From: a virus
Length of the DNA: 37,528 nucleotides
Virus record (IMG/VR): IMGVR_UViG_3300017735_000034
Coordinates: 1 to 37,528 of that record
Reading direction: 5' to 3' (one strand)
In this document: one piece after another, positions 3,501 to 26,243 of the stretch
How the letters are laid out: each line of letters starts with the position of its first letter
How positions within the stretch are numbered: the stretch's first letter is position 1
Program-made: the position numbers and the translations under genes
The notes under the pieces: generated by a model
Database searches by the model: none
Told to the model about the DNA's origin: nothing
Seen by the model: the letters and a program-made list of their open reading frames with translations, nothing else

Positions 3501-4586
3501 ATGGCTTTTATGTCATCTGATGCCGCACCTGCGTCTCGCGTAGGTTTGGATCAAAACAACTCAGGAGCAGGAGTGGATTCACTCTTTCTCAAAGTATTCA
3601 GTGGTGAGATTCTCACTGCTTTTGAAACGTCAACTGTAATGAAGGAACTTCACACTATCCGTACAATCGGTTCGGGTAAGTCTGCAAGTTTCCCCGTCAC
3701 AGGTGTCGCCGATAGTGCCTACCACACGGTTGGTCAATCTATCGTCGAAACTGGAACAAGTTACCTCTCTGACATCGCTAAGACTGAGAAGCAAATCTTC
3801 ATTGATGATATGCTTGTTAGTTCTACCTTCTTAGCCAACGTCGACGAGCTAAAGAACCACTATGACATCCGCAGTATCTATGCGGCTGAACTTGGTAAGG
3901 CTCTTGCTAAACGCTTCGACATTGCAACTATGAAGACGCTCTTCGCCGCTACTGGTGCAAGTGCTAACCTTAGTGGTCAAAGTGCAGGAACTCGCATCAC
4001 TGGTGCAGACCTTGACACTACTGCTGAAATCATCGACGCGCTATTTGGCATCGCCACTACGCTCGACGACAACGACGCACCAAGTGAAGGTCGTTTCGCT
4101 ATCCTCACACCAAAGACCTACTACCAGTTGTTGACTTCTGACAACAATGCCATCAACCACGCTGTATCTTCTGACTACGGTAGCGGTGGTAATGTTGCCG
4201 CAGGGTCTATCCCAATGGTAGCTGGTATCCGTCTAATCAAGAGCAACCACCTCAAGGACATTGCTGAACTTGGTGACCAACGCACAGCGACGGTCACAAC
4301 TCAGACTGGCGTTGACGGTTCTGCTGGTGTCAAGAATGACGTAGCAGGTGTTACAGGAGATGGCTATGAGTCCAACTTCTCGGGTCTTGTTACTGGCAGT
4401 GCTGGTAGTGAAACCTATGGTATCCTTGCTGGAACAAAAGAAGCTATTGGCACGGTTAAGCTACTCGACCTCGCAACAGAGTCCGAGTATCAAATCGAAC
4501 GCCAAGGCACACTGTTCGTAGCTAAGTATATGATGGGCCACGGCGTGCTTCGCCCAGAGTGCTCAGTTGCAGTTACTGTAGACTAA
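3501..4586 (+). CDS. Major capsid protein, T7 gp10-like
   Basis: The 361-residue protein is slightly longer than T7 gp10A (345 aa) and has the family layout. A flexible N-terminus carries LFLKVFSGEILTAFE (about residues 28-42), followed by RTIGSGKSASFPVTG and the E-loop/P-domain region with QIFIDDMLVSSTF. The C-terminal A-domain contains AILTPKTYYQLL and ends with GHGVLRPECSV. It forms the HK97-fold icosahedral shell. It is preceded by a strong ribosome binding site and followed 10 bases later by a rho-independent terminator, as in T7, where the terminator after gene 10 caps the main late transcript. The loop between residues 265 and 305 (glycine-, valine- and threonine-rich) looks like a surface insertion. 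Confidence 0.95.
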   Translation: MAFMSSDAAPASRVGLDQNNSGAGVDSLFLKVFSGEILTAFETSTVMKELHTIRTIGSGKSASFPVTGVADSAYHTVGQSIVETGTSYLSDIAKTEKQIFIDDMLVSSTFLANVDELKNHYDIRSIYAAELGKALAKRFDIATMKTLFAATGASANLSGQSAGTRITGADLDTTAEIIDALFGIATTLDDNDAPSEGRFAILTPKTYYQLLTSDNNAINHAVSSDYGSGGNVAAGSIPMVAGIRLIKSNHLKDIAELGDQRTATVTTQTGVDGSAGVKNDVAGVTGDGYESNFSGLVTGSAGSETYGILAGTKEAIGTVKLLDLATESEYQIERQGTLFVAKYMMGHGVLRPECSVAVTVD

Positions 4587-4596
4587 TCCTTAACCA

Positions 4597-4633
4597 AGCA
4601 CCCCTTGGGTCTATCCCCTTGGGGTGCTTTTTT
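4597..4633 (+). terminator. Rho-independent terminator after the capsid gene
   Basis: AGCACCCC (4597-4604) pairs with GGGGTGCT (4621-4628), with an inner GGG/CCC stem, and a six-T tract follows (4628-4633). The position matches the T7 terminator downstream of gene 10. The GTG start used by the next ORF lies in the right arm of the stem. Confidence 0.88.
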
Positions 4634-5025
4634 CCCTGAAAACTAAAAAGAAGTGTATTTCTTGTAATCGTACGAAGCCTTTAGGGGCTTTTGACTTTCA
4701 CAACAGAGACGCTGGAACCGTGCGTAACCAGTGTAAGTCCTGTCGGTCTATAAAACAGATTGAAAGGACTTATGGCATAACTCGCAAGGAATACGAAGAT
4801 CTGCTTAAAAAGCAGGACGGAAAGTGCGCTATATGTTACACAAAAACACCTTCAAAAGATAAGAGCTATAAAAGGCTTTTCATAGACCACTGCCACACAA
4901 CGGGTGACGTAAGAGGTCTACTATGTGCAACATGTAATCAAGGAATCGGTCTCCTTAAAGACGACTCCAAACTACTCAACAACGCAATTTTATATTTAAA
5001 AAACTATGGCAACCCTAACGACTAA
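4624..5025 (+). CDS. HNH endonuclease, recombination endonuclease VII-like (probable homing endonuclease)
   Basis: The 133-residue protein has an N-terminal treble-clef-like C11xxC14...C37xxC40 motif. It is followed by the endonuclease VII core: C68xxC71, DHCH at 88-91, then C101xxC104N. This is the T4 endonuclease VII/HNH family, whose free-standing phage members act as homing endonucleases cutting capsid- or tail-region DNA. The only in-frame start near the beginning is GTG at 4624, inside the terminator stem; the frame is open back to 4594 without an ATG. Its last 20 bases overlap the tail tubular A gene. Insertion directly after the capsid terminator suggests an invading selfish gene. The start is uncertain (a CTG at 4636 is an alternative). 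Confidence 0.82.
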   Translation: MLFSLKTKKKCISCNRTKPLGAFDFHNRDAGTVRNQCKSCRSIKQIERTYGITRKEYEDLLKKQDGKCAICYTKTPSKDKSYKRLFIDHCHTTGDVRGLLCATCNQGIGLLKDDSKLLNNAILYLKNYGNPND

Positions 5026-5596
5026 ACTAGAAGCAGTAAACTCTATGCTGGGTCACATCGGTGAATCACCTGTGAATAGCATAAGTAGCTCCGCCTCATT
5101 GCCCATATCAGCGGCAACGGCTTCAGGAATACTAGATGAAATCAGTCGTGAGGTTCAGTCAGAAGGGTGGCACTTTAACACCACAAATAAACACACACTG
5201 AGTCCCCTAGATGGTAAGATTATTTTACCAGATAATACATTACACGTAGATGCTTTAGATAAAAACGTCGACGTCGTTCAGAGAGGATTAAGTTTATATG
5301 ACCGAGAAAACAACACAACTACTTTCACAAAAGACCTTAAGGTAGTCCTGATGGTTTTATTAGATTGGGACGACTTACACGAGACAGCTAGACGTTACAT
5401 AACACTCAGAGCTTCTCGTGTGTTTCAAGGACGTATGGTAGGCTCTCGCGAGCTTGAAGCTCTTATAGCGAGAGACGAGTATCAAGCTAGAGCGCGTCTT
5501 GAGGAGATGGATTCTAGCGGATCGGATCGCACTATATTTGACAACTACGACGTAGCCTCTAGAATAGGCATCAACCGTAACTACGAATTGCTATAA
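5006..5596 (+). CDS. Tail tubular protein A, T7 gp11-like
   Basis: The 196-residue protein matches T7 gp11 in length (196 aa) and pattern. It begins with a LEAVNSMLGHIGESPV segment (residues 8-23), followed by an EISREVQSEGWHFNT segment and a C-terminal helix ending in NRNYELL. This gatekeeper ring sits below the portal and connects to the nozzle. The start ATG is within the end of the HNH gene and has no visible Shine-Dalgarno box. Its TAA overlaps the ATG of the tail tubular B gene (TAATG), indicating coupled translation. Confidence 0.92.
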   Translation: MATLTTKLEAVNSMLGHIGESPVNSISSSASLPISAATASGILDEISREVQSEGWHFNTTNKHTLSPLDGKIILPDNTLHVDALDKNVDVVQRGLSLYDRENNTTTFTKDLKVVLMVLLDWDDLHETARRYITLRASRVFQGRMVGSRELEALIARDEYQARARLEEMDSSGSDRTIFDNYDVASRIGINRNYELL

Positions 5597-8451
5597 TGCC
5601 ATTAATTAATACGTCTTTACCTAATCTTATACAGGGTGTATCACAGCAACCTGACGCAACTCGCTTTGCTGGTCAGTGCGAGACACAAGAGAATGCGATT
5701 AGCTCTGTTGCAGAAGGTTTAAAGAAACGCCCAAACACGCGACACGTTGCTAAGTTACTGTCGACGGCTATAGACAACAACAGCTTCGTTCACTTTATCA
5801 ATCGTGATGACGAAGAGAAGTATGTAGTAATACACGGTGGTTCTACTCTTGAGGCTTGGAACATGGTTACTGGTGAGAAGTGTTCTATAACCGATGCTAA
5901 TGCTAACACCCCCAATTACTCGGCTTATTCTACCAACAATTATCTAACTACAACTAATCCAAGAGAAGACATTAAAGCTCTAACTGTATCAGACAATACC
6001 TTTATTGTTAATAAGAATGTTAGTGTTGGTATCTCTCAAACGAAAACACCAGCCTTAGAAAAGAAGGGGTTTGTTTACGTAGCTCAAGGTGATTACAAGA
6101 AGAAGTATCAAGTTAATATTGGAGGTAATATTGAGGGAGATGTACCAGCCAATCAAGCAACATTTAATGTTGTTGTTGAAGGTTACTACCACGGTAGTGG
6201 TTGGCATCGCTTTAGAATAGGGAGTGTTGAAGTTGTTAATGGAGGGTCAGGCTACGCCGCAACGACACCGCGTTTGTTAAACGTCTCTATAGATTTTGGT
6301 CTCTTGGGAACAACAAGACCTAGAAGTTATAGAAATCTTGTTACAAACCCAGTGATACGCGCCGTGTTTGCTGATGATGGCACGGGTAATGGAACTAAAA
6401 AGATAGAATCAGTTATCATCTCCAATAAAGGTAAATTTGGAAGTCACGACAAAAGTGAAACTGGTGATAGTTTTAGTGAGGATTATAACGGATTAGTAGT
6501 CCTTACAGCCCAAGGAGATATCTCTACTGGCATACAACACAGCTTTTCAACGGTAGGGTCAGCCTCTTCCGCTGACGATGCGGCTACAGACAACATCGCT
6601 ACGTCGCTATTTAACGCTACATATTCGCCTAGCTCTTTTAGTGCCGCTGTTCCTATGATTGGGACTGATGCTCTTAATCCAATCTTTATGGATGCGGACC
6701 CCGCGCTTACGCCTACTAGAGAGGGAAACACTATTATTATTAAACATAATAGAACGAGTGGTGATTTTACCCTAGAAACAACAGACGGCTTAGGGGGTGA
6801 AGGGATTAAGGCTGTTTACAAGCGCGTTAATTCACTTGTAGACCTACCAGTAAAAGCACCTAATAACTTTGTAATAGAAATTGTCGGAGACGCTGATTTA
6901 GATCAAGACAACTACTGGGTGAAGTTTACAACAAACAGCGGTGCTGATTTTGGTGAAGGAGCGTGGGAAGAAACAGTTGCTCCTGACGTCTCTGATGGTT
7001 TTGACGCCGCCGACATGCCTATGACCATTAGAAGTGTAGACATAAACAAACTTGAGGTTAGCACTTTAGATTTTAACAGAAGAGCCGCTGGAAACGAAGA
7101 AACTAACCCAGACCCCTCATTTGTAGGTAAGACAATTAAAGACATCGTTTTCTTTCAAAACAGGCTTGGTTTTATAACTGAAGATAGTGTTGTATTCTCT
7201 GAGACTGGTGAGTTCTTTAACTTTTATAAAACCACCGTGTCAGCTTTACTAGACACAGCACCCATTGACGTTACGGTAAGCACCACAAAAGTTGCTAAAC
7301 TTTCTTCAGGTGTGGTATTCCAAGAAAACCTAATGCTTTTTGCAGACAACGTGCAGTTTATTATGAAGGGCGGAGACACGTTTACTCCTAAGACTGTTTC
7401 GGTGTCTGCCTCTACTAATTTTAGTCTAGAAGAAGATGCAAAACCAATTCTTATTGGTTCTTACTTATACTTTGCTTTTACTCGCGGTGCTTTCACTGGT
7501 ATGAGAGAATTATCCGTAAAAGGTAATACTGAGACCTACGACGCTGTAGAGATTACAGAGCACGTTCCCGCGTATATCCCTAATAAAATTATAGCAATGA
7601 AGGGGACAACATCTGAAAATATCCTTGCCCTGCTTAGTGCTAATGACCGCAGTTCTTTATATATCTATAACTACTTTTGGAGTAATGATCAGAAGGTTAT
7701 TAGTGCTTGGTCAAAGTTTACGTTTACGGGTGACGTCCACGGCATGGAATTTATAGATTCTCGTCTTTACTTGGTAATAACTAACAACGGAGAAACTAAT
7801 CTCGTTGAAGCACCTATAGAATCTGGACTAACGGACACCGATGACCCCTTTATACCCGCCAGCCAAACAGCTGTCAGCTTAGGTTTTGTTACTCACCTAG
7901 ATATGCGGGTGACAGCTACAGTCGCTAATGGCGCATCTTCAATAACCCTCCCTTACACCCCACAGGACAACTCGGTAGAGGTTTACACAACAGATGGGCA
8001 TTTATTAAGGTCAACTAATGTAGGGGCTACTGTTACGCTTTCACAGGCTGTAAAGGCAGACACCGATGTATTTGTAGGAATACCCTACAATATGAAATAC
8101 ACTTTTAGTGAGCAGTTATTCAAAGCAACAGCAGGAAAGGGGAAGTCCCCTAATGCCTCTGCTAAATTAATGATTCGTAATGGTTCGGTCTACTACGACA
8201 AAACTAGTTACTTTAAAGTTACCGTCACGCCTAAATCTAGAGACTCTTATGTAAATACGTTTACAACCGCTGTGGTCGGCTCATCTCAGTTAGGCGCACT
8301 AGAGCTAGAAAGTGGATCTTTTCGTTTTCCAGTCTTTACTAAGGCAGAGGATACCACCATTACAATTGAGAATGATAGTGCCTTGCCCAGTAATTTCCAG
8401 TCGGCAGAATTTGAGAGCTTTCTTCACAGCCGATCAAACAGATATGGCTAA
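5596..8451 (+). CDS. Tail tubular protein B (nozzle), T7 gp12-like
   Basis: The 951-residue protein opens with the family signature NLIQGVSQQPDATRFAGQC, followed by EGLKKRPNT. It contains the VFFQNRLGFITEDSVVFSETGEFFNFY block (about residues 515-541) and an ALLSANDRSSLYIYNYFW beta-propeller segment, all characteristic of T7-like nozzle proteins. It is longer than T7 gp12 (794 aa), with extra beta-rich sequence around residues 170-330. It forms the hexameric tail nozzle to which fibres attach. It is coupled to the upstream gene by a TAATG overlap and overlaps the downstream gene by 8 bases. Confidence 0.94.
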   Translation: MPLINTSLPNLIQGVSQQPDATRFAGQCETQENAISSVAEGLKKRPNTRHVAKLLSTAIDNNSFVHFINRDDEEKYVVIHGGSTLEAWNMVTGEKCSITDANANTPNYSAYSTNNYLTTTNPREDIKALTVSDNTFIVNKNVSVGISQTKTPALEKKGFVYVAQGDYKKKYQVNIGGNIEGDVPANQATFNVVVEGYYHGSGWHRFRIGSVEVVNGGSGYAATTPRLLNVSIDFGLLGTTRPRSYRNLVTNPVIRAVFADDGTGNGTKKIESVIISNKGKFGSHDKSETGDSFSEDYNGLVVLTAQGDISTGIQHSFSTVGSASSADDAATDNIATSLFNATYSPSSFSAAVPMIGTDALNPIFMDADPALTPTREGNTIIIKHNRTSGDFTLETTDGLGGEGIKAVYKRVNSLVDLPVKAPNNFVIEIVGDADLDQDNYWVKFTTNSGADFGEGAWEETVAPDVSDGFDAADMPMTIRSVDINKLEVSTLDFNRRAAGNEETNPDPSFVGKTIKDIVFFQNRLGFITEDSVVFSETGEFFNFYKTTVSALLDTAPIDVTVSTTKVAKLSSGVVFQENLMLFADNVQFIMKGGDTFTPKTVSVSASTNFSLEEDAKPILIGSYLYFAFTRGAFTGMRELSVKGNTETYDAVEITEHVPAYIPNKIIAMKGTTSENILALLSANDRSSLYIYNYFWSNDQKVISAWSKFTFTGDVHGMEFIDSRLYLVITNNGETNLVEAPIESGLTDTDDPFIPASQTAVSLGFVTHLDMRVTATVANGASSITLPYTPQDNSVEVYTTDGHLLRSTNVGATVTLSQAVKADTDVFVGIPYNMKYTFSEQLFKATAGKGKSPNASAKLMIRNGSVYYDKTSYFKVTVTPKSRDSYVNTFTTAVVGSSQLGALELESGSFRFPVFTKAEDTTITIENDSALPSNFQSAEFESFLHSRSNRYG

Positions 8452-9397
8452 TGAGATTGTCAGTGTTCACGGTGATTGTAAGGTAGTAAAAGCTACCGAA
8501 GATCACATCGAAGACATCTATCCTTTTATGCGTCGTGAGGATCAGATGGAGGTTGCCTGTATGGGCTATCAACCAAAGGAAGCCTTACAGGTTGCCCTTA
8601 AAAGTGACGCTGTAACTCTTACCGCAGTAGACAAGGACGACGTCCCCTTTGCAATGTTTGGTGCAGGACAGATTGAGGGTATGGCTTACATTTGGTTGCT
8701 AGGCACAGATGGACTTCTTGATAACTCTTATAACTTTATTAAGGCATCCCGTCACTACACACAGCTTTTTGCACAAACGTATGACTGTGTCTTTAACTAT
8801 GTTCACAAGGAAAATAAAAGCGCATTAAAGTGGTTAAAGTTCTGCGGAGCTAAGTTTGTAAATACTACTGAGTTTATGGGTGAGTCCTTTTATGAGTTTG
8901 TTATTACGGCAGACCAGTCACAAGTAGAGCAACCTATTCCCGTCAACGTCGACGACTTCAATAATAAAGTAGTATCTTTTGAAAACGATATAAGGACACT
9001 CGAAAATGCCATCGTAGACCCTGATGAGATTGAGAAGATTAATCCATTAGAGCACTCATTTGGTGAGGGCATGTATGTTCGCAAGATTGTAATGCCCGCT
9101 AATCAATTAATCGTCAGTAAAATACACAAACAGGATCATCCCTACTTTATTATGTCAGGAGATGTCTCTATTCTTACTAAAGATGGCGTCGTCCGTATAG
9201 ATAAACCGCATCACGGGATGACAAAAGCAGGAACAAAGAGAGTTCTATATACACACGCAGAAACCACTTGGATAACGGTTCAACACACTCACGAAACAGA
9301 TTTAAACAAGATAGAAGAAGACGTAATGGCAAAAGGATTTAACGACCCTGCTTTGACCGTTGACGAATTTAACTTACTAACAAAAGGAACTAACTAA
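8444..9397 (+). CDS. GNAT acetyltransferase-like (DUF2833/gp13-type) fused to a cupin-like domain
   Basis: I use the ATG at 8444 (product begins MANEIVSVHGDCKVV, 317 aa), because the longer frame from 8312 would run deep into the nozzle gene. Residues 1-150 resemble the DUF2833/GNAT-like fold seen in T7-like phages at the gp13 position, with an internal GAGQIEGMAYIWLLGTD strand and a KENKSALKWLKFCGA helix. Residues from about 198 onward form a double-stranded beta-helix (cupin-like) unit with EHSFGEGMYVRKIVMPA, KIHKQDHPYFIMSGDVSIL and a final WITVQHTHETD. Phage cupins of this type are usually separate genes, so the fusion is notable. Substrate and role are unknown; its place among virion genes suggests a virion component or assembly factor. 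Confidence 0.75.
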   Translation: MANEIVSVHGDCKVVKATEDHIEDIYPFMRREDQMEVACMGYQPKEALQVALKSDAVTLTAVDKDDVPFAMFGAGQIEGMAYIWLLGTDGLLDNSYNFIKASRHYTQLFAQTYDCVFNYVHKENKSALKWLKFCGAKFVNTTEFMGESFYEFVITADQSQVEQPIPVNVDDFNNKVVSFENDIRTLENAIVDPDEIEKINPLEHSFGEGMYVRKIVMPANQLIVSKIHKQDHPYFIMSGDVSILTKDGVVRIDKPHHGMTKAGTKRVLYTHAETTWITVQHTHETDLNKIEEDVMAKGFNDPALTVDEFNLLTKGTN

Positions 9398-9401
9398 TAA
9401 A

Positions 9402-10031
9402 ATGACTTGGGTAGCAACAACAATCGCTGTTCTTAGTGCCGCGGGCACTATTTATGGGCAACAACAAGCGGCAGACGCGCAGGAGGAAGCTCAAGAAAAC
9501 GCCTCAATACGTGAGAGACAACGCCAGCTTGCTGAGATGTCTTCAATGCGAACTAAGCAACGCTTTGAGCAGATCGCAATGAGTCAAAAATTACAGGTCA
9601 ACGCTCTTAAAGCTAAGGAAGCTAGAGCAACCTCTAAAGCCGCAGGGGCATCGGCAGGTATTACTGGTCAGCTTCTTACGGACATCCTAGATTCTACGTC
9701 ACGCGAAGAAGCAAATTATAGCTACTCAGTTTTGCGTAACCAACAACTAGCCAACATCAACACCGCTATAGGGCTTGAAAACTCTACACAGCAAAGTAAG
9801 GCTAACCTATTACGCATCAATCAACCTATAGCTCAACCAGATTATTTTGGAGCTATACTTAGTGGTGCTCAAACAGGGATTTCCATGAGTTCAGGTCTTA
9901 AAGACGCTGGCATCACTGGAGCTAAAAAGCCTCCCGCGGGTGGTGGTGGGGGCGCTAGCTTTCAATCCTCTAGTCCTTTCTCAACACCTCAAACAAGTTA
10001 CACACCTTTCTCAGCACCAACCTCCCTTTAA
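9402..10031 (+). CDS. Internal virion protein, T7 gp14-like
   Basis: The 209-residue protein has a hydrophobic N-terminus (VATTIAVLSAAGTIYGQQQA), followed by a long, charged, probably helical region and a QAADAQEEAQ...KEARATSKAAGASAG pattern typical of T7 gp14 relatives (T7 196 aa). gp14 is ejected into the outer membrane to form part of the DNA-translocating channel. The glycine-rich C-terminal stretch (about residues 178-190) is low in complexity. It is followed 2 bases later by the gp15-like gene, in T7 order 14-15-16. Confidence 0.85.
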   Translation: MTWVATTIAVLSAAGTIYGQQQAADAQEEAQENASIRERQRQLAEMSSMRTKQRFEQIAMSQKLQVNALKAKEARATSKAAGASAGITGQLLTDILDSTSREEANYSYSVLRNQQLANINTAIGLENSTQQSKANLLRINQPIAQPDYFGAILSGAQTGISMSSGLKDAGITGAKKPPAGGGGGASFQSSSPFSTPQTSYTPFSAPTSL

Positions 10032-10033
10032 TA

Positions 10034-13000
10034 ATGGCTAAAAACCCACTAGAAGAACTTATTAAAAACCGAACCCCTAAATATGGCGAGCTAGGCTCAG
10101 GGCAGGAAGCAGTATCAACTGATGTAGCCAGAGCTGGTAACTTTCAAGTAAACACTGGTCCATACGAAAAGACGAATGCGGCTCTACAGTTTGCTGAAGG
10201 CTTAAATAAACTTCCAGATGTTTATGATTCGGCTGTTAAAGCCCGTCAAAAAGATGCCGCCATAAAGGTCGCACAAATGGACGAGGGTGAGTTTAAGGAA
10301 GCATATCAAAAGATCATTGCTGGTGACGTTGCTGATACAGCTAGTCTGTTTGGATACACTAAAGCACATCAACAAAAGATTGTAGAGCGTTACCACAACG
10401 AAGTTGTACCGCTTGAGCTTAAAGATATATCTAGAGATTTTAGAAACAAACTAAACGACTACCCAAGTATTATAGATTTTGATGAAGATGTAGAAGCGAC
10501 AGTCGACGCCTACTACAGAGAAGTTGGTGAGCGTTTTAATGCAAGCCCCTTCACCGAAGAAGCGCACGGCTTACTTTCTATCGGCAAAGCGGCTAAACTA
10601 AAAGTAGAGCTACACGACGCCTATGAAGCACAGGCTTTAGAATACATTAAAGGTCAAAGTATCTCAAACGGCGTAAAAGCACTGGAGGATATGCAGGGTA
10701 ACGTCGACGGCGTCGAACTTACGTTAAATGCGATTCACGCGGACGCCAAGGCTTCTACTGGGAGTAATGCAGATGCTAATGCTATTACTGTTGCTTCTGT
10801 TAATTCCAGAATTGAAACACTTATAGCAGAAGGCACAAGTGAGACTCTAGATGAAGCTGCAGAGCTTCTGGAATACGCGTATGATGGTGGTCTAGAAGTA
10901 GCTAATAAGGATATTTTTGAGACTGCTGACGCACGTGAAAAAGAAATTCAATTAAGAGTAAAACTTGCGGGCGCACTTAGATTTAAACCCCAGCAAATAA
11001 CGGCAGAGGCTAAGGCGTTTCATGCAGAGCACTTACGCGCCTACGCTACCGCAAAAACACCGAAAGCCCGCGCAGAAGCGTTAGTGAAGTGGAATGAAGC
11101 AAAGGATGCTATTAAAGAGGCTGAGGTTTGGCAGATGGCAACTAAATTCCAAGAAGAGGCGCTCAGTGATCCACTCTTTAGCGCAGAAGAATTCGCAAAA
11201 GAAGCAGTAGAAGAGTTCCTTGATGACACAAGCGATAGAAAGTCAATAAGTAATGTCGAAATTCAATCATTTCTACAGCAAGGTGAGTTTAGCATAGAAG
11301 ATATGAATCTTTTATTACCGCGCTCTGCTGACGATACGGGCGTTGCTCCTACGCCGTCGTTCAACAAGTTATCTGGCGAGGCAATTGATGTGTATAGGAC
11401 TACACTAAACGCTGAGTTAATAAACATATTTTCTTCACCAGAGTATGAGACAGATGAAGAGCGTACAGCCGCAGGTCTTGAGGCAAAACAAAGAGTTTAT
11501 GATCAGACACAAGACTACGTAATAAACCGCGCACGTAGTCTTATATCTCAAGAAAAGCCCAAGAAAGAAACCGATCAAAAAGTTTCAGACCTAAAGTCTT
11601 TTGGTGCTTCTCCTAAACAAATTGAACAATATAGAAAACTTAGAATCCAAGACTCTCCATCCGCAGAACAATACTTTGAGCAAGTTAAAGATACACGGTT
11701 AGGTAATGATATTAAAAAACTTTACGACGTAAAGTCTGATGGCAGTGTTTCGATAAATATAAATGACTGGTGGTTTGTAAGTTCAGATTATGTTCAAATT
11801 GGTGAAAACTTTAACAAGCTAGTTCAAGCCCGTGTATTTAAAGACGAGGACAATCAAAGAGAACAGCACCAAAGAGTTCTTGAGTTTATTAACAGTAGAT
11901 CAAAAGTTGGCGACGAATCTATATATGCGGCGTTGGCTAACGGCGAACAGCAAGGTTATAAGGACATGCTTACTCTTATTAAACTACGAGGAATTAGTGA
12001 AGAAGCGTTCTTAACAGGTGTTGTAAGTGGTGGTTACACCATGTCATACCCAGACGTATCACCAATAGGTGCAGGAGGCGGTGTGCCCATGCAATCTAGG
12101 GAAAGCTCTGATACTTATCTTGGTATGATACTTATTGAAGACAATCTTTATGCTGAAGATATAGATAAGTTTCCTATCGCTCTTGATGGGGATATTAACA
12201 AAACTATAGAAGCTATTGAGTCTGGCGCGGCGTTTGCCTTCAAAGACATAGCTGAAAAGCTAGGAGTGACTCCAGAAAGTGTTCTTGAAGCTCAGAAGGC
12301 TTACCTTAAAACCCTTGGTTACTTTACAGAGGACAATACGGTCGACAACGACGACGATCCTACAGACGACGACGAAAAAAAAAGTAATGTTCAACTAGAC
12401 TCATCAGTTAGTGCTGATACAGTTATAGGAATGGGTGATTTAAATGACTTAAGCGGCGAAGGTGCTCAGTTTAAAATTCAAGAAAACTACTCCTCGCTCG
12501 CTAAAACCTCTACGGATAAAGACGAAAACACTTTTCAGACTACATTTAAAGATTTCATGAGACAATATTATGAAAACAATGTAAATCATAAAGGTGGCAA
12601 GGAAGGCATAGGGGCGGCTTTTGATCGCAAGTTTGAACAGATGGTAAACAGAGACCCTAAATTACTTCAGTTATTAAACCAAAATGTTACTCTATCTTTT
12701 GATATGAGCGAGGAGGATCAATCATCAGGAAAACTAGGTTACTATACGGGTGACTTTAAAACCAAGACAGGTCATATAACCATATCCCCTTCATTAAATT
12801 ATAAAAAAATGGAGCAGATCATCGCCCACGAATTAATCCATTCACTGCAATATAATGTAAAGAATAGGAAGGGATTAAAGACAAACCCTTATACCAACCA
12901 AATAAGGCGACCTCTTGATTATACAGCTCCTAAGGAAGACTTTTTAAAATATCTACAGTCAGAGGTTGAGAGCGAAGCGCGCATGGCAGAGGTCGCTCGT

Positions 13001-13342
13001 TATTACGCTGAGAAGACTGGAACCATGCTAGGTGAAGGGCAACCTGCTCCCTTTGATCAATATCATATAAAGGGCGCATTTAAGGCTTTAGTTCACTTTA
13101 TGACTAACGATTCTATAGCCGATCACTATCGTGACACTCAAGAAGAGCTATATAAGATACTTCAACTAAAAACCCCTAAGATAAATGACTCAATGACGCC
13201 TTTACAAAAAAGAAATCAAAGAAACAATCTTAGGAAAGAACTAAGTAACATTCCAGATGAACAATTAGAGCCAATCCTCGGTTCAATCGCAACCCTAGCA
13301 TCCAATAACCCAATTCAAAACTCTAACCAACAATTAGCATAA
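10034..13342 (+). CDS. Internal virion (ejection) protein, T7 gp15-like, with C-terminal HExxH zincin-like domain
   Basis: The 1102-residue protein occupies the gp15 slot (T7 747 aa) and has the same helical, alanine- and glutamate-rich body (residues 1-760). After an aspartate-rich linker (about 768-783) comes an extra domain with IIAHELIHSLQ; H932-E933-x-x-H936 is a zinc metallopeptidase motif. A downstream SEVESEARMAEVA segment offers a candidate third ligand, as in gluzincin-like enzymes. T7 gp15 forms the periplasmic tube with gp16 and has no such domain. The added domain could cut peptidoglycan or host envelope protein during DNA entry, or mature other virion proteins; this is inference. 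A nine-A run at 12375-12383 lies exactly at the linker. Confidence 0.85.
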   Translation: MAKNPLEELIKNRTPKYGELGSGQEAVSTDVARAGNFQVNTGPYEKTNAALQFAEGLNKLPDVYDSAVKARQKDAAIKVAQMDEGEFKEAYQKIIAGDVADTASLFGYTKAHQQKIVERYHNEVVPLELKDISRDFRNKLNDYPSIIDFDEDVEATVDAYYREVGERFNASPFTEEAHGLLSIGKAAKLKVELHDAYEAQALEYIKGQSISNGVKALEDMQGNVDGVELTLNAIHADAKASTGSNADANAITVASVNSRIETLIAEGTSETLDEAAELLEYAYDGGLEVANKDIFETADAREKEIQLRVKLAGALRFKPQQITAEAKAFHAEHLRAYATAKTPKARAEALVKWNEAKDAIKEAEVWQMATKFQEEALSDPLFSAEEFAKEAVEEFLDDTSDRKSISNVEIQSFLQQGEFSIEDMNLLLPRSADDTGVAPTPSFNKLSGEAIDVYRTTLNAELINIFSSPEYETDEERTAAGLEAKQRVYDQTQDYVINRARSLISQEKPKKETDQKVSDLKSFGASPKQIEQYRKLRIQDSPSAEQYFEQVKDTRLGNDIKKLYDVKSDGSVSININDWWFVSSDYVQIGENFNKLVQARVFKDEDNQREQHQRVLEFINSRSKVGDESIYAALANGEQQGYKDMLTLIKLRGISEEAFLTGVVSGGYTMSYPDVSPIGAGGGVPMQSRESSDTYLGMILIEDNLYAEDIDKFPIALDGDINKTIEAIESGAAFAFKDIAEKLGVTPESVLEAQKAYLKTLGYFTEDNTVDNDDDPTDDDEKKSNVQLDSSVSADTVIGMGDLNDLSGEGAQFKIQENYSSLAKTSTDKDENTFQTTFKDFMRQYYENNVNHKGGKEGIGAAFDRKFEQMVNRDPKLLQLLNQNVTLSFDMSEEDQSSGKLGYYTGDFKTKTGHITISPSLNYKKMEQIIAHELIHSLQYNVKNRKGLKTNPYTNQIRRPLDYTAPKEDFLKYLQSEVESEARMAEVARYYAEKTGTMLGEGQPAPFDQYHIKGAFKALVHFMTNDSIADHYRDTQEELYKILQLKTPKINDSMTPLQKRNQRNNLRKELSNIPDEQLEPILGSIATLASNNPIQNSNQQLA

Positions 13343-13348
13343 ATAAAT

Positions 13349-16300
13349 ATGTCAGCATTTGATAAAGCAATACAAGCGGCTCAACGTGGCGCACGCCAGA
13401 GTGGAGTTGAAGAAGAAAAGAAAACACCTTGGGCAGTCGATTTAGCTAAAGCTATTCCTCGTGGTCTAGAAGGTGGCATACAGGGTATATATAATTTTGC
13501 AGACTACGCCACGGGGGATATTCTTCCTGATTACGATGAAAGACTACTAGGGCGTTCCGAAACGATGGTAGGTGGTTTTGCTGAAGGTGCTGTGCAGTTC
13601 ATGACTGGTTTCATTCCCATTGCAGGACAATTAGGTAAGGCAGGACAAGTAGCACGCCTAGCGTCTGCTGGTGCTAAATCTAAGAGATTTGCTAAAATGG
13701 CTAAACGTCGTAAACGCGCGGCTGACATAGGCGCAGGTGCGGCGGCTGACTTCTTGATGTTTGACGGACAAGAAGCACGACTAAGTAACCTCATGGAAGA
13801 ATTTAACTTCCTTGATACGCCTGTGAGTGAGTATCTTGCCGCAGAAGACGACGACAACGAGGCAGAGGGACGCTTTAAAAATGCCATAGAAGGGCTGTTT
13901 ATTGAGGCAGGTATGCGCGGCTTCGGTGGTGTCTTTAGAAGTGGTATTAAAGCCATGAAGGAAGCACGCAGGGCTAAACTATCCGAAGACCCAGAGACGG
14001 CTTTACGGGCGATGTATGACACTATTTTAAAAGGCTTGGATAAGGCTAATGCTGGGTCTGGTATCTTTAGAGCAACTGACGATAAGTCTTTTGATCGTTA
14101 TGTACAGGAAACAGCAAGCCAACGCGCTCTTTCAGGTGAGGGTGGAAACCTTTCTGCTTATGACTTTACCGAGGGTTGGCTTAAAACAGAAGCAGGACAG
14201 GACAGCGCATACCGCCCTCTACTAGAGCAGTTACTAAAAGATAATGCTGAGACCCTTAAAAATACAGGGTTCTTCGGAGCTGGTGGGAAAGACTTTGATG
14301 CTCTTGGTCGGTTCTATCAATTTGATGACGGATCAGCGGGCATAAGAGTAAGCGGAAGTAGAAAAAAATTCCTAGAAGCAAAGAAAGACTCTGAAACTAC
14401 ATTTTTACACGAAACACTTCACGCGGTAACCGCCGTTAAACTAGAGGACGTATTTCAGCTTAACCAAGTTAAAGTTGCATTAGGCGAAGGGGCATCTAAC
14501 AAGGATGTCTTTTTTGAACAACTAAAACGCATTGAAGAAATAGCTAAAAACAAAAATGTAGAGGAGTCCTTTAGAGGTATCGCTTCTACATACCTAAAGG
14601 CTGTAATGGGTAATACTGGGTATAAAAACGTAGCAGACGTCGACATCGACAAGCTATTTACAGATATAGCTTCTCGTGCAGGAGACAGTCGTAACCGCTA
14701 CGGGCTAACTAATTTACATGAGTTTGTCGTAGAGACGATCAGTAACCCTAAGTTCTTTAGAGAGCTAGAAGGCGGAATAAACCCCGCTCAACGTGGGATG
14801 TTAGCTCAGATGCTACACTGGATAGGACAGATGCTCGGTGTTAAAGAAAACCTTTCTGGTGACTTTGGAACTATAGTTCGTAGTAGTTTATCAGTAGCTC
14901 GTGCTCAAGAAAAAGACATATTAAGTGGTGCGTATCAAACAGGTAACTTTAATCGCGTCGATGAACTACAGCTAAATGACAAGGCTGATGACGCATCGTT
15001 TAATGCCTCACTTGATAAAGTTGATGCTAATGATGCTGTTGAGATGGGTGACACTGGTCGCGCAGACTATGAGGGTTTTGAGGACTATGATGGTTTCTTT
15101 GGTGATACTCCTAGCAAAATAGAAGAGTATGGAATGGGAATAAGCACACGACAGCTCGACCCAGACTTTGGATTAGAAGAAGTCACCCCAGCTAGTGAGG
15201 TTCTAATTAAAGACCCACTTAATGAAGATGCTCAATTTTCTGAACTAGGAAAAGTAAAAGCAATAGACCTAGAAGCTATTAATCTCGACCAACTACCAAG
15301 CCGCTTTGAACAAGAGGACATAGTAGAAGGTGCAAAGAAGATTACTGAGGAAGAAAGGGCGTTTGAGGCAAAGCGTAAAGAGCTTGCTAAAACACCAGTC
15401 AAAGTTAACACAAAGAAGCAAGACTTTACTATTTCTGTTGAGGGTGGAAAAAAGGTAACAGTTAAAGCTAACTCAGTAAGTTATCCAGAGTTTCCAGAAT
15501 TTAATTTCTTTGTTCGTAAGAAGGGCGACATCTATGAACTTAGTGAATCAAAAACTGGGCGTGTATTAGGCGGTGCGGGTGCTAAAACACGAAAGCAGAC
15601 CATAGAAAACGGACGTAATCTTTTAAACAAAGTAGGTGCAAAAAAAGTTGCAGAGATAATAGCAGAGGACACACCAAAGCAAAGACCAGCCACCGTCGGA
15701 AAAAATGCCTTAGCAATAAAACTTAAAGACTTCCGTAAGGAAAAGAAATCGGCTTATGTTCGTTATCTTAAAATGGTTCGTAAAGGTGTTAAATCACCAT
15801 CAAAGGTTCTTGATGCCACGTTTACCATGATGAAGACAAACGACGGAAGGACAATCACGATGGGTATGCGTCACCGCGCCGCCAGACGCCTTCTAAACGA
15901 AGATTTACGAAAAGCTAAACTAAATGACAAATTATTTACAAAGGCTGAACTAAATAGCCGAAAAGAAGCTCTAAGAAAGCTGGATACACTAAGAACAAGA
16001 TTAGAAGAAGTAGATGGACAAAAGCAACAACTTGTAAGAAGTTTTAAGTCTGGTTTTCCTCTTTATGAGAAGACTGGTCGAAAAAACTACGCACAAAGCG
16101 CTATAGACGCAGTAGAGGGTGGTGTTGATTTTCGACTTGGCGTATTTGATGAAGTAAATAGACTACGTCCCTACAAGACTAAAGACGCAGACGGAAATAT
16201 AGTTACTGAAGAAATGCTCGTAAGTGGTAAAACAGATACGGGCGTTGGAAGTGCAAACGCAAGAATACGAAGAGAAGCGGGTGACACCAAACAGATTCTT

Positions 16301-19300
16301 AATGAAGGCTCCACATCTCAGAGACAGACCGTAAGAGAGGTTTTCGATAACGCAAAGGAAACCCACCCAAGTTTAGCGAATGTGCAAGCGAAGGTAGAGG
16401 ATCAAGCCCTTCAAAAGATGAATCTCACACGGGAAGAGGTTAAAAACCTAAGCCCAGACGACAGAGCGTTACTCTTAGAAGAAGCTCGTATGCTTTCGGA
16501 AGCACGGAGAGCTAAGCACGAAGCAGTTCGAGAAAAATTAGATCTTAACGATAAGGAATACGATGAGTTCTTTGGCGAAGGAGCAACTGACAAGCTAATT
16601 GATAAGTTTAGGAATGACCCTAGGGGTGGCGAAGAAGCACTCAGGAACATCCTTAAAAGCACAAGTAGCTCTGCTGGTGTCCTCCACGTAATGCGGACAC
16701 TGGTGCGTCACTTAGGTGAAGCTAAAGAGAGCATTACTAAAGACTCGGACTTAGCCCAAACTACTCAAGACCTTGTTGACGCTCTTGGTGGAAATGCTGA
16801 AACCTTTAATGCCCTAGCGCGTAGCTTGGGTGAGGGCACAGACGCCTTTAAACAGCTAAGAAATGAGCAAGCGGCTATCAAGATGACTATGGATGCCTTG
16901 GCGGTAGACCTACAAGCTCAAGCCGTGAAGTTTCAAAATGATGGCATGTTAAATGTCACCGATGGGCAACGTGTGGAGTTTCTTGAACAGCTGGATAGAC
17001 TTTATGAAGTTAGTCGCCTTTGGGTTATGTATGGTAAAGAAGCGTCTAAGACTTTACGTCAACGTCGTCCTCTTCTCAAGGGTGTTCTTCCAGAGGTTCA
17101 CGAAGCTGTTAATCAGGGAGGAATGAACAACCGAGAGGTTGCTACCCAGATGCCCACTAACGAAGCCAGATCTCGTTATTTGGCAGGTAAAACAACGGCA
17201 AAACGATTTGACCAAATTGTCGAAGAAGTAGCCACCGCTACCAACAGCCAACACCTTGTAAACGACAAGAGTATTAACCCTGTAGTTGCCACAAAAGTAG
17301 CTAAAGGTATTCACGGTTCTAAAGGAATGTCTATGATCCTAGAGTATTGGACAAACTCACTTCTGTATGGACCAACCACACAAGCTGTTAATATCTTTGG
17401 TAATGGTCTTACCTTTGGTTTAAGAGCTATGGAGCTTACCGCTGGGTCGGTTGCTACAGGACAGTTTGAACTTGCCCGAGCCGCCTTTGGCGCGGCGTTT
17501 GCCTTTGACAACTGGAGAGAGTCTTATCGTTTAATGATGAGAACCTTTAAGGAAGGAAATATTCTTACCCAAGGAAGCGCGGCATTTAAAGATAATAAGT
17601 ATGACGTAAACAGAATTACTTCGTCTAACTTAAATGACATGACGCCTCTTAATCTTACACCGCAAGGCACACTAAGGGCGGGAATGTTTGATTTGTTTGG
17701 TAAGTATTCTAGAGTTCCATCATCGTTGTTATCTGCTGGAGACGAGTTCTTTAAACAGCTCAATTATCGTTATCATGTGAAGACGATGTTGGCGTATGAA
17801 GGAGCTGTTAAGAAAGGTTTTAAAGATTTAGAATTACGGGACTACGTAATGACTAAGTTTAAGAGCATGGAAAACGAAGGACGCGCATACAATCAAGAGA
17901 ATATGGACATCAACTTCTACAACTCTGAAATCAAACCTCGGTTAGAAGATCAGAACGAACCTGAGTTTAATGCTGTGCTCGCTAATAAAGAGTATGAAGC
18001 ATATAAAGAAGGTAAGTATGTAAATAAAGACGGACAAGCAATGACACGCGAGATAGCCGAAAAGGGCGAGTCTAGAACAGTTATGGGAGCCGCCGCGCTC
18101 AAGTTTGCAAGAGAGAATACCTTTACAGATGACTTAGATGAAAAGACTGTATTTGGTGTTATGGCTAAGCACTTGAACCAGCTAAAGATGAACCCAGCAA
18201 CTAGCTTTATTTCATTCATTGTGCCCTTTGTCCGCACCCCTACAAATATCCTAAAGTTTGCTCTTGATCGTACTCCAGTCGGTGTTGCGCCTCGTGCACT
18301 TATTGGAGACGGCGGTCGTTTTATTGGTAAGCACCTTATGGGCATACAGACTCAGTATAAGTCAGCACTTATGTCAAAAGACCCAGCCATCAGAGCACAA
18401 ACTATGGGTCAGCTTACTACCGCTGTAGGCATGGGATCTACTCTAATGTATTACTTAGGCACTAACCAAGAGTTCTTTACTGGAGCAGGACCACAAGACG
18501 CAGACAGACGAAAGGCTCTTCAAATGGGTGGCTGGCAACCTTACTCAGTTAAAGTAGGTGACAAGTATTACAGCTACCAACGCGCCGACCCTATGTCTAC
18601 CGTTCTTGGTTTATATGTAGATATGTTTGAAGCATACAAGTATCACGACGTCGACGAAGACACTATGTCCTATTTGTCTGGCGTTATGATGCTCTCATTC
18701 ATCAACAACATTGCCAACAAGTCATTCTTGCAGGGTATAGATAATATGTTGCAGGTTCTTAGTGACCCTATTGGATCAACTACTAAAGCTGGTGGAGATA
18801 TTGCCGCTGGATTTGTTCCCAACTATTTCCAACAAATTAAGAACATTGAGACTACTCGTGAGCTTAAGGAAGCCAGAACAATGTGGGATCGCATAATCAA
18901 AAGGACACCCTACAGCGACGAGCTAATGCCTAAACGTAACGCGCTTGGAGAAACGATTACAGTCGACAACCCTCCTTATGGTCTTGGTGTAATATCACCA
19001 GTCTACATACGTAACGTAAGTGATGATCCTCTCGACCAAGAGATAGCTCGTTTAAACAAGGGCTTTAGTGTCCCTAAGGCTAAGCTAATGAACGCCTTTG
19101 ATATGCGTCAATCTCGCAACGAAGAAGGTCAAACAGCCTACGACCGCTACCAGCAACTTACTAGCGAGGTAGAACTAAACGGAAGATCACTTCGCAAGGC
19201 TCTTAGTGACCTCATGAAAACTCCTTACTACAAGACCTTAGAAGAGGGAACATCAGTAGACCTAGGTAAAGGTATTCAACCGCCTCGCGTAAGAGCGATG

Positions 19301-19411
19301 CAGAAGATTATTACTAGATACCGCAGGTTTGCTAAAAGCAAGATGCTTAAAGAATTTCCAGAACTTCAAGAAGAAGTAGACGCACTTATCCAACGCAGGA
19401 GACAACTATAA
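13349..19411 (+). CDS. Large internal virion (ejection) protein, T7 gp16-like, with HExxH zincin-like domain
   Basis: The 2020-residue protein is much longer than T7 gp16 (1318 aa). An N-terminal region contains a hydrophobic GAVQFMTGFIPIAGQLG stretch. I see no lytic transglycosylase (SLT) motif like that at the N-terminus of T7 gp16. Instead there is TTFLHETLHAVTAVK with H354-E355-x-x-H358, followed about 100 residues later by LHEFVVETISNPKF (E458/E462 are possible third ligands). This matches the zincin-like domains known from phage polyvalent proteins. A long charged region follows. The C-terminal third resembles gp16 relatives, with FISFIVPFVRTPTNILKFA and several hydrophobic segments. 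It probably spans the inner membrane during ejection. Confidence 0.87.
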   Translation: MSAFDKAIQAAQRGARQSGVEEEKKTPWAVDLAKAIPRGLEGGIQGIYNFADYATGDILPDYDERLLGRSETMVGGFAEGAVQFMTGFIPIAGQLGKAGQVARLASAGAKSKRFAKMAKRRKRAADIGAGAAADFLMFDGQEARLSNLMEEFNFLDTPVSEYLAAEDDDNEAEGRFKNAIEGLFIEAGMRGFGGVFRSGIKAMKEARRAKLSEDPETALRAMYDTILKGLDKANAGSGIFRATDDKSFDRYVQETASQRALSGEGGNLSAYDFTEGWLKTEAGQDSAYRPLLEQLLKDNAETLKNTGFFGAGGKDFDALGRFYQFDDGSAGIRVSGSRKKFLEAKKDSETTFLHETLHAVTAVKLEDVFQLNQVKVALGEGASNKDVFFEQLKRIEEIAKNKNVEESFRGIASTYLKAVMGNTGYKNVADVDIDKLFTDIASRAGDSRNRYGLTNLHEFVVETISNPKFFRELEGGINPAQRGMLAQMLHWIGQMLGVKENLSGDFGTIVRSSLSVARAQEKDILSGAYQTGNFNRVDELQLNDKADDASFNASLDKVDANDAVEMGDTGRADYEGFEDYDGFFGDTPSKIEEYGMGISTRQLDPDFGLEEVTPASEVLIKDPLNEDAQFSELGKVKAIDLEAINLDQLPSRFEQEDIVEGAKKITEEERAFEAKRKELAKTPVKVNTKKQDFTISVEGGKKVTVKANSVSYPEFPEFNFFVRKKGDIYELSESKTGRVLGGAGAKTRKQTIENGRNLLNKVGAKKVAEIIAEDTPKQRPATVGKNALAIKLKDFRKEKKSAYVRYLKMVRKGVKSPSKVLDATFTMMKTNDGRTITMGMRHRAARRLLNEDLRKAKLNDKLFTKAELNSRKEALRKLDTLRTRLEEVDGQKQQLVRSFKSGFPLYEKTGRKNYAQSAIDAVEGGVDFRLGVFDEVNRLRPYKTKDADGNIVTEEMLVSGKTDTGVGSANARIRREAGDTKQILNEGSTSQRQTVREVFDNAKETHPSLANVQAKVEDQALQKMNLTREEVKNLSPDDRALLLEEARMLSEARRAKHEAVREKLDLNDKEYDEFFGEGATDKLIDKFRNDPRGGEEALRNILKSTSSSAGVLHVMRTLVRHLGEAKESITKDSDLAQTTQDLVDALGGNAETFNALARSLGEGTDAFKQLRNEQAAIKMTMDALAVDLQAQAVKFQNDGMLNVTDGQRVEFLEQLDRLYEVSRLWVMYGKEASKTLRQRRPLLKGVLPEVHEAVNQGGMNNREVATQMPTNEARSRYLAGKTTAKRFDQIVEEVATATNSQHLVNDKSINPVVATKVAKGIHGSKGMSMILEYWTNSLLYGPTTQAVNIFGNGLTFGLRAMELTAGSVATGQFELARAAFGAAFAFDNWRESYRLMMRTFKEGNILTQGSAAFKDNKYDVNRITSSNLNDMTPLNLTPQGTLRAGMFDLFGKYSRVPSSLLSAGDEFFKQLNYRYHVKTMLAYEGAVKKGFKDLELRDYVMTKFKSMENEGRAYNQENMDINFYNSEIKPRLEDQNEPEFNAVLANKEYEAYKEGKYVNKDGQAMTREIAEKGESRTVMGAAALKFARENTFTDDLDEKTVFGVMAKHLNQLKMNPATSFISFIVPFVRTPTNILKFALDRTPVGVAPRALIGDGGRFIGKHLMGIQTQYKSALMSKDPAIRAQTMGQLTTAVGMGSTLMYYLGTNQEFFTGAGPQDADRRKALQMGGWQPYSVKVGDKYYSYQRADPMSTVLGLYVDMFEAYKYHDVDEDTMSYLSGVMMLSFINNIANKSFLQGIDNMLQVLSDPIGSTTKAGGDIAAGFVPNYFQQIKNIETTRELKEARTMWDRIIKRTPYSDELMPKRNALGETITVDNPPYGLGVISPVYIRNVSDDPLDQEIARLNKGFSVPKAKLMNAFDMRQSRNEEGQTAYDRYQQLTSEVELNGRSLRKALSDLMKTPYYKTLEEGTSVDLGKGIQPPRVRAMQKIITRYRRFAKSKMLKEFPELQEEVDALIQRRRQL

Positions 19412-25181: not shown

Positions 25182-26243
25182 CTAGTATGATTGTATCATT
25201 TTTGTATTAGGGTTACTAAGTGCATTGGCTTTGAAGTATAGCCATGCGTTGGTGATGTCGCCGTTATCTAACTCAACGGGTATTTGTTTCCGTTGGTAGT
25301 GCCATGGGACACCTTCAAGTGTGTCTAGTGAATCGCGATCTTCTATTTTGTCTACTTCGTATACTTCAATGCGTACGTTGTGACCTTTACCAGCTTCGTC
25401 GAACATATACGGTAGGCTGGATGATATTTGCAGTGGATACTTGTTTATAGTGTAGCCTGTGCTAACTAACTTCATGCCAGTGTTGAATCTATCGTAGTTT
25501 CTACCGCCTCCTTTAAGAGTGCCGTAGACTGCAACTTTGTTGTTGTTTTCCCAGCTAGGATAATCTGTATCTGAATACCAATTATCGTAGTAGTCGTCTT
25601 CGTATAGGGGGTCACTACATATAGGTTCTTTTGCTAGATGACCGCTATATCTAGTGGTACAACTGGTTGATTTTTTACTATATGATGTGAGTGGTTGTGA
25701 GTATTTACCTGACCAGTTGTAGTGACCAGATGTATAACCCGTTCCGTAACCGATGTATTTAGCGAAACAGTCTGATTTGCTGTAGTATACACCTTCTTTT
25801 TTGTGCCATTTGCCGTGGCGTGTTACGTTGCCGTCACCGTCTACGAGTGCAAACCGTGTTTCTGTGAATGATAGCATTGCATCCCAGTGTTCTTCTGGTG
25901 TATTGCTTAGTATATCACATACTACTTGAGTGTCGCACTTGTCTTTTGATCCTAGATCGGCAACAGTGCCGTTACTGAATAGCCAGCGTTCTGGTTTGTC
26001 TACAAAGAACGGGTGACAGTTATCTAGTATGACCGGTCCTTTGGTTGCATACCTATAGTGTGCTACGAAGGGTCGCTTTACTTCTAGAAGTGTGCGCGCA
26101 CGTTCATAGTCCATTGTTGTGATACATTCTAGATCGTCTAAGTAAACGATACCGAATCCGTCTGGGTTCTTAGTCTCCGCATTATCTATGTAAGTGGGAT
26201 TAAGGCTTGTTTTTGCTTTTGGTTTATGTATTATTAGGCACAT
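25182..26243 (-). CDS. Class II glutamine amidotransferase fused to a gamma-glutamylcyclotransferase (AIG2)-like domain
   Basis: The 353-residue leftward protein begins MCLIIHKP; Cys2 would be the N-terminal nucleophile after methionine removal. Class II GATase landmarks follow: GFGIVY, HYRYATKG, NCHPF and FSNGTVADLG (all before about residue 95), the usual places for the RxAT and NG motifs that bind glutamine. From about residue 236 a GGCT/AIG2-like fold starts with VYGTLKGGGRN (Y240), continuing with IEVYEVD, DSLEGVPWHYQRK-type and NAWLYF segments. The first domain would release ammonia from glutamine. The second is of the family that cyclises or cleaves gamma-glutamyl linkages. It lies 4 bases downstream of the putative amidoligase, indicating one operon and probably one pathway. 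Confidence 0.8.
   Translation of the reverse strand: MCLIIHKPKAKTSLNPTYIDNAETKNPDGFGIVYLDDLECITTMDYERARTLLEVKRPFVAHYRYATKGPVILDNCHPFFVDKPERWLFSNGTVADLGSKDKCDTQVVCDILSNTPEEHWDAMLSFTETRFALVDGDGNVTRHGKWHKKEGVYYSKSDCFAKYIGYGTGYTSGHYNWSGKYSQPLTSYSKKSTSCTTRYSGHLAKEPICSDPLYEDDYYDNWYSDTDYPSWENNNKVAVYGTLKGGGRNYDRFNTGMKLVSTGYTINKYPLQISSSLPYMFDEAGKGHNVRIEVYEVDKIEDRDSLDTLEGVPWHYQRKQIPVELDNGDITNAWLYFKANALSNPNTKMIQSY

What the first reader, a model, noticed from the sequence alone, without database searches (positions are those of the whole stretch)
14366..14800. A second HExxH domain in the gp16-type ejection protein, in place of a transglycosylase
HETLH at 354-358 and LHEFVVETISNPKF at 456-470 fit the zincin domain of phage polyvalent proteins. 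The T7 gp16 N-terminus has a lytic transglycosylase instead, which I do not find here. Two metallopeptidase-like motifs in consecutive ejection proteins suggests a changed envelope-penetration mechanism, such as cutting peptide crosslinks or envelope proteins rather than glycan.
Basis: partly seen in the sequence, partly recalled or inferred. Interest (0 to 1): 0.7.

Follow-up and report, generated by a model that had tools for sequence, protein, structure and literature searches.

The report
Zinc-peptidase domain in phage ejection protein
A marine T7-like phage carries, in the large protein it injects into its host, a genuine zinc-peptidase-type domain; the same domain is already present in several well-studied phages (phiKMV, PhiM1, N4, crAss-like), so it is a new member of a known kind rather than a new way of breaking the cell wall.

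Summary
HETLH (residues 354-358, nt 14408-14422) and the HEF motif (456-469, nt 14714-14755) form one zincin domain. H354, E355, H358, Y451 and E458 are invariant in 51 relatives down to ~11% identity; E458 is the likely third zinc ligand. AlphaFold2 gives a confident zincin core (pLDDT 86, pTM 0.84), and the best structural and profile matches are zincins. The domain is the known zincin peptidase of phage polyvalent and ejection proteins. It occurs at the equivalent place in phiKMV gp37 and PhiM1 TEP (both solved, the latter labelled 'endolysin/exotransglycosidase-like'), in N4 virion RNA polymerase and in crAss-like phages. It does not replace a transglycosylase: none of 45 gp16-type relatives has a detectable SLT, half lack the zincin too, and phiKMV and locus L074 have a glycosidase in the gp15-type partner together with the gp16-type zincin. 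The domain is an optional, fast-diverging cassette gained or lost at least four times. It most likely acts on proteins after ejection. The neighbouring gp15 has a separate HELIH domain in the slot where relatives carry a lysozyme or glucosaminidase; that is the more interesting lead.

The parts
13349..19411 (+). gp16-type internal virion / ejection protein, 2020 aa
   Evidence: phrog_6651 internal virion protein, E=1.6e-38, residues 1581-2011; tblastn to Pelagibacter and Roseobacter T7-like internal virion protein D; follows gp14- and gp15-type genes
13439..14068 (+). conserved N-terminal region (residues 31-240), shared with gp16-type proteins with and without the zincin; no SLT
   Evidence: tblastn, alignments A3-A6, Pfam
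14162..14953 (+). zincin metallopeptidase domain (residues 272-535)
   Evidence: AlphaFold2 model pLDDT 86, pTM 0.84; fold matches; profile matches
14408..14422 (+). HETLH (354-358): predicted zinc ligands H354 and H358, catalytic E355
   Evidence: invariant in 36/36 and 51/51 sequences
14699..14755 (+). second active-site motif Y451...E458-F459...NPKF; E458 is the predicted third zinc ligand
   Evidence: Y451 and E458 invariant in 36/36 and 51/51; on the second conserved helix of the model
17198..19378 (+). conserved C-terminal region of gp16-type proteins (residues 1284-2010)
   Evidence: tblastn, A2 and 80 loci
10034..13342 (+). gp15-type ejection protein, 1102 aa, with its own HExxH domain near the C-terminus
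   Evidence: position between gp14-type and gp16-type genes; weak Pfam hits SprT-like and DUF6782, phrog_87 metallo-protease E=6.6e-5
12827..12841 (+). gp15 HELIH (residues 932-936); candidate third ligand E979 (nt 12968-12970)
   Evidence: HExxH and E979 invariant in window, L022 and L023 only
9402..10031 (+). gp14-type internal virion protein
   Evidence: PF24072 T7_gp14 E=7.5e-21

Best explanation
Residues 272-535 of the gp16-type ejection protein are a zinc-dependent gluzincin peptidase domain (H354 and H358 plus E458 bind zinc, E355 is the catalytic base). It is packaged in the virion core as a cassette between the conserved N- and C-terminal parts of gp16 and ejected with the DNA. It most likely cuts protein substrates after ejection, most probably host proteins (about 45%), next the ejection proteins themselves (about 25%). 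Shown by computation: the fold, the conserved active site, family kinship, optional mobile distribution, and absence of SLT. Inferred: zinc binding, catalysis, timing and substrate.
For: Active site invariant in 51 sequences. Model with N-terminal helices, three strands, HExxH helix and later helix with E458, pLDDT 86, pTM 0.84. Nearly all top VIA-align rows are zincins: M34 lethal-factor protease, SPRTN-type, MATCAP, ACE2, LTA4 hydrolase (best Z 6.7, rmsd about 4.5, about 140 aligned); Foldseek top is a putative zinc metallopeptidase, probability 0.91. Profile of the phage domains finds phiKMV gp37 (1e-21), PhiM1 TEP (4e-15), an M34 zincin (6e-6) and N4 vRNAP (4e-5). Cassette behaviour: 22 of 44 non-redundant relatives have it, at least 4 gains or losses on the tree; among relatives without it are SAP, methyltransferase or ART-PolyVal domains in gp16, i.e. 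effector-like modules. It diverges faster than its flanks (36% against 58-60% identity to L022) while the active site stays fixed, which fits changing substrates. PMC5512222 describes the same domain in N4 vRNAP as the commonest peptidase of polyvalent proteins and reports that N4 vRNAP is packaged unprocessed.
Against: No zinc or activity measured. Z below 8 alone would not prove the fold; the case rests on profile plus model. Host-target cleavage is inferred from company and divergence, not from a substrate. PMC5512222 prefers self-processing for many such domains, and P1 DdrB is processed.
Confidence: 0.5

Rival explanations
1. Self-processing: the zincin cuts gp16 or gp15 in the capsid or after ejection, to free or remodel domains of the ejection channel.
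For: Proposed for polyvalent zincins in PMC5512222; the cassette sits between two conserved structural parts, where cutting could separate them.
Against: Half of related gp16-type proteins do without it; PMC5512222 reports that N4 vRNAP is packaged unprocessed.
Confidence: 0.25
2. Envelope penetration: the zincin cuts peptidoglycan peptide crosslinks or envelope proteins instead of glycan.
For: No SLT, lysozyme, glucosaminidase, Amidase_2, Amidase_3, M15 or M23 domain found anywhere in the contig; ejection proteins cross the envelope.
Against: phiKMV and L074 keep a glycosidase in gp15 beside the gp16 zincin, and PhiM1 does so according to PMC11440229; relatives without zincin also lack SLT; no kinship with peptidoglycan peptidases; same domain occurs in N4 vRNAP and crAss-like RNAP-associated proteins.
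Confidence: 0.12
3. Non-catalytic structural or regulatory domain that kept the zinc site for stability, e.g. organising DNA in the capsid or regulating a partner, as the N4 CTD inhibits its polymerase.
For: In PhiM1 the domain lines a groove along DNA (PMC11440229); N4 CTD autoinhibits vRNAP (PMC12633501).
Against: Catalytic E355 is invariant together with the ligands; a purely structural zinc site would not need it.
Confidence: 0.12
4. Chance HExxH in a helical protein.
For: T7 gp16 has such a chance motif.
Against: Shuffle frequency 0.5%; invariant coupled second motif in 36/36 and 51/51; zincin model.
Confidence: 0.01

Closest known systems
phiKMV gp37 (PDB 9sfn chain G), gp16-type internal virion protein of an Autographiviridae phage
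   Same: Same domain at the same place (HEAVH at 423 of 1337; profile E 1e-21), same gene order, preceded by a gp15-type protein
   Different: gp15-type partner gp36 carries a lysozyme domain, residues 751-854; here that slot holds a HELIH domain; the Tyr at the 451 position is not kept in gp37
Pectobacterium phage PhiM1 tetrameric ejection protein (PDB 8vb2)
   Same: HEAAH at 385, same position and order, profile E 4e-15
   Different: Published as an 'endolysin/exotransglycosidase-like' domain, residues 268-528 (PMC11440229); partner OEP reported to have a lysozyme-like domain, which the Pfam lysozyme model did not find there
Zincin (MPTase, C1) domain of N4 virion RNA polymerase and polyvalent proteins (PMC5512222; PMC12633501)
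   Same: Same fold family and active-site pattern; phrog_2206 match E=1.1e-4; PDB profile match
   Different: There fused to a polymerase; here to a T7 gp16-type channel protein with a longer insert between the two active-site helices
crAss-like phage RNAP-associated proteins fused to a zincin (phi14:2, cr11_1, cr4_1)
   Same: HExxH and EF motif in the same order, virion proteins
   Different: Different carrier protein and phage lineage
T7 gp16
   Same: Gene order and C-terminal kinship through the internal virion protein D family
   Different: T7 has an SLT at 15-127 and no zincin

Membership tests
Zincin-like metallopeptidase of phage polyvalent / ejection proteins (PMC5512222) | HExxH on the first of two conserved helices | tested here: met
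   HETLH 354-358, helix 76-98 of the model
Zincin-like metallopeptidase of phage polyvalent / ejection proteins (PMC5512222) | glutamate ligand on the second conserved helix | tested here: met
   E458 invariant in 51/51, helix 185-194 of the model; actual zinc geometry not measured
Zincin-like metallopeptidase of phage polyvalent / ejection proteins (PMC5512222) | three-stranded sheet flanked by an N-terminal helix | tested here: met
   strands 35-39, 49-53, 59-63 after N-terminal helices
Zincin-like metallopeptidase of phage polyvalent / ejection proteins (PMC5512222) | sequence-profile kinship with members | tested here: met
   N4-like vRNAP and crAss-like proteins found by a profile built only from gp16-type domains; phrog_2206
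Zincin-like metallopeptidase of phage polyvalent / ejection proteins (PMC5512222) | zinc-dependent peptidase activity | not testable with these tools
   needs purified protein
T7 gp16-type internal virion protein D | C-terminal kinship and place after gp14- and gp15-type genes | tested here: met
T7 gp16-type internal virion protein D | N-terminal SLT transglycosylase (T7 itself) | tested here: not met
   no hit with PF01464 while T7 gives E=1.7e-31; also missing in 44 relatives, so not a defining feature of the wider group
Peptidoglycan hydrolase (lysozyme, glucosaminidase, amidase, M15, M23) | match to the curated family | tested here: not met
   no match anywhere in the contig
M34 (lethal-factor-type) zincins | close fold and sequence kinship | tested here: inconclusive
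   profile E 6e-6, Z 6.7: nearest solved peptidase fold outside phages, not filed as a member

The most novel reading that the evidence does not exclude
This phage clade (window, L022, L023) has swapped the peptidoglycan glycosidase slot at the C-terminus of its gp15-type protein for a second, different metallopeptidase, so that it enters the cell with two injected peptidases and no recognisable wall glycosidase, opening the wall through peptide or protein cleavage.
Probability: 0.12. Interest if true: 0.7.

Novelty: new member of a known kind. Interest (0 to 1): 0.38.

Why it matters
It shows that a zincin cassette long known from N4-type polymerases and polyvalent proteins is also a common, optional part of gp16-type ejection proteins of T7-supergroup marine phages, and that two solved ejection proteins (phiKMV gp37, PhiM1 TEP) carry it. 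For PhiM1 this suggests that a published 'endolysin/exotransglycosidase-like' label should be re-read as a peptidase. Model phages are thus at hand in which the role of injected zincins can be tested.

Tried and rejected
Pfam and NCBIfam do not recognise the domain. Single-sequence phmmer of the window domain and of the whole gp16 against PDB found no relative; profiles were needed. AlphaFold2 on residues 1-600 was poor (pLDDT 59) and its fold search meaningless; the absence of SLT therefore rests on profiles, not on a fold of the N-terminus. The 7-sequence alignment A1 was too divergent for a collection scan. Foldseek did not list 8vb2, 9sfn or N4 in the rows shown; this is not evidence against kinship. 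A search of gp15 in the phage collection found nothing. Chance motif considered and rejected.

Full report
Observation. The ORF at 13349-19411 (+) encodes 2020 aa and follows gp14-type (9402-10031) and gp15-type (10034-13342) genes. HETLH lies at residues 354-358 and LHEFVVETISNPKF at 456-469. Only 0.5% of shuffled versions of the protein contain any HExxH.

Relatives. By BLAST, the N-terminal 31-240 and C-terminal 1284-2010 regions are shared with gp16-type proteins of Pelagibacter and Roseobacter phages, but the HETLH region is not. The six isolate or fosmid relatives examined have no HExxH. A weak tblastn with residues 268-584 instead picked crAss-like RNAP-associated proteins and Acinetobacter N4-like virion RNA polymerases through the second motif only; all six examined carry an HExxH 20-55 residues upstream of the matched stretch. 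phrog_2206 (virion RNA polymerase) matches at E=1.1e-4.

Conservation. Scans of viral contigs by the C- and N-terminal regions gave L021-L119. Of 44 non-redundant full-length gp16-type proteins, 22 have HExxH and 22 do not. In all 36 HExxH segments H354, E355, H358, Y451, E458 and G497 are invariant. In a 51-sequence set that includes many other giant phage proteins, H354, E355, H358, Y451 and E458 remain invariant; members of that set were required to show a Tyr before the second motif, so the Tyr count is partly built in, the other four are not filtered beyond HExxH itself. A profile built only from gp16-type domains finds the crAss-like and N4-like ones at 1e-7 to 1e-17 and PhiM1 TEP, and rejects T7 gp16, which has a chance HERLH.

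Structure. AlphaFold2 of residues 272-535 with these relatives gives pLDDT 86 and pTM 0.84: helices, three strands, the HExxH helix, an inserted helical part, and a helix with E458. The top solved-structure matches are zincins; Z of 6.7 is moderate, but the sequence profile independently finds an M34 zincin (6e-6), phiKMV gp37 (1e-21), PhiM1 TEP (4e-15) and N4 vRNAP (4e-5).

Transglycosylase. PF01464 finds the T7 SLT but nothing in this contig or in 23 related contigs; Pfam finds none in 45 gp16-type proteins. So SLT absence is general in this group and is not linked to the zincin. Glycosidases appear at the C-terminus of the gp15-type protein instead: lysozyme in L039 (residues 952-1070 of 1086), glucosaminidase in L074 (793-904 of 926), lysozyme in phiKMV gp36 (751-854 of 898). 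PhiM1 OEP is reported to have a lysozyme-like domain from structure comparison (PMC11440229); the Pfam lysozyme model did not find it there, only the separate endolysin. L074 and phiKMV also have the gp16-type zincin, so the two coexist; L039 has the lysozyme without a gp16 HExxH. Most other gp15-type relatives scanned show no recognisable glycosidase.

The gp15 neighbour. Window gp15 has HELIH at 932-936 with an invariant E979, shared only with L022 and L023. It is weakly SprT-like and only its strand-plus-helix part resembles the gp16 zincin. It occupies the C-terminal position where some other clades have a glycosidase; the homology of the slot is positional only, since gp15 sequences barely align.

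Evolution. On a tree of gp16 C-termini the zincin needs at least four gains or losses (quick method, some long branches). Among relatives without it, two gp16-type proteins match SAP domains, one a methyltransferase and one ART-PolyVal. The domain is 36% identical to L022 where the flanking regions are 58-60%.

Mechanism. Zinc peptidase chemistry is inferred from the conserved site. Effector-like companions in the same protein family, rapid divergence around a fixed active site, and presence in N4 and crAss-like injected proteins favour action on proteins after ejection. Self-processing, proposed for such domains in PMC5512222, remains open. Peptidoglycan cleavage by this gp16 domain is unlikely but not excluded; the contig has no detectable SLT, lysozyme, glucosaminidase, Amidase_2, Amidase_3, M15 or M23 domain, although it may be incomplete.

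Known or new. The domain was described for N4 and polyvalent proteins (PMC5512222) and seen in the N4 structure (PMC12633501). PhiM1 TEP residues 268-528 were called endolysin/exotransglycosidase-like (PMC11440229), while the same stretch holds HEAAH at 385 and matches the zincin profile. I found no paper in the library that names a zincin in phiKMV gp37 or PhiM1, but the library is incomplete.

Noticed in passing
12827-12841 (gp15, HELIH) and L022, L023: A second, different HExxH domain at the C-terminus of the gp15-type protein, where some other clades have lysozyme or glucosaminidase; found only in this small clade.
   Followed up: partly
PhiM1 TEP, L121:2198-5986: A solved ejection protein whose published 'endolysin/exotransglycosidase-like' domain carries the zincin motif and matches the zincin profile.
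   Followed up: partly
whole window: No SLT, lysozyme, glucosaminidase, Amidase_2, Amidase_3, M15 or M23 domain found; no endolysin recognised (contig may be incomplete).
   Followed up: partly
8312-9397: gp13-type protein whose C-terminal half matches tail fibre adhesin families (phrog_24280, phrog_12032).
   Followed up: no
25182-26243 (-): Gamma-glutamyl cyclotransferase domain (GGACT) preceded by a weak class-II glutamine amidotransferase match, beside an unknown 577-aa ORF at 26248-27981 (-).
   Followed up: no
4624-5025: Recombination endonuclease VII gene between the capsid and tail tube genes.
   Followed up: no
L041 gp16 (3854-8338): gp16-type protein without zincin but with a SAP domain and a weak methyltransferase match; another relative has ART-PolyVal: alternative injected cassettes.
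   Followed up: partly
L016, L017: crAss-like loci with in-frame TAG codons in the zincin gene, read here as Q.
   Followed up: no
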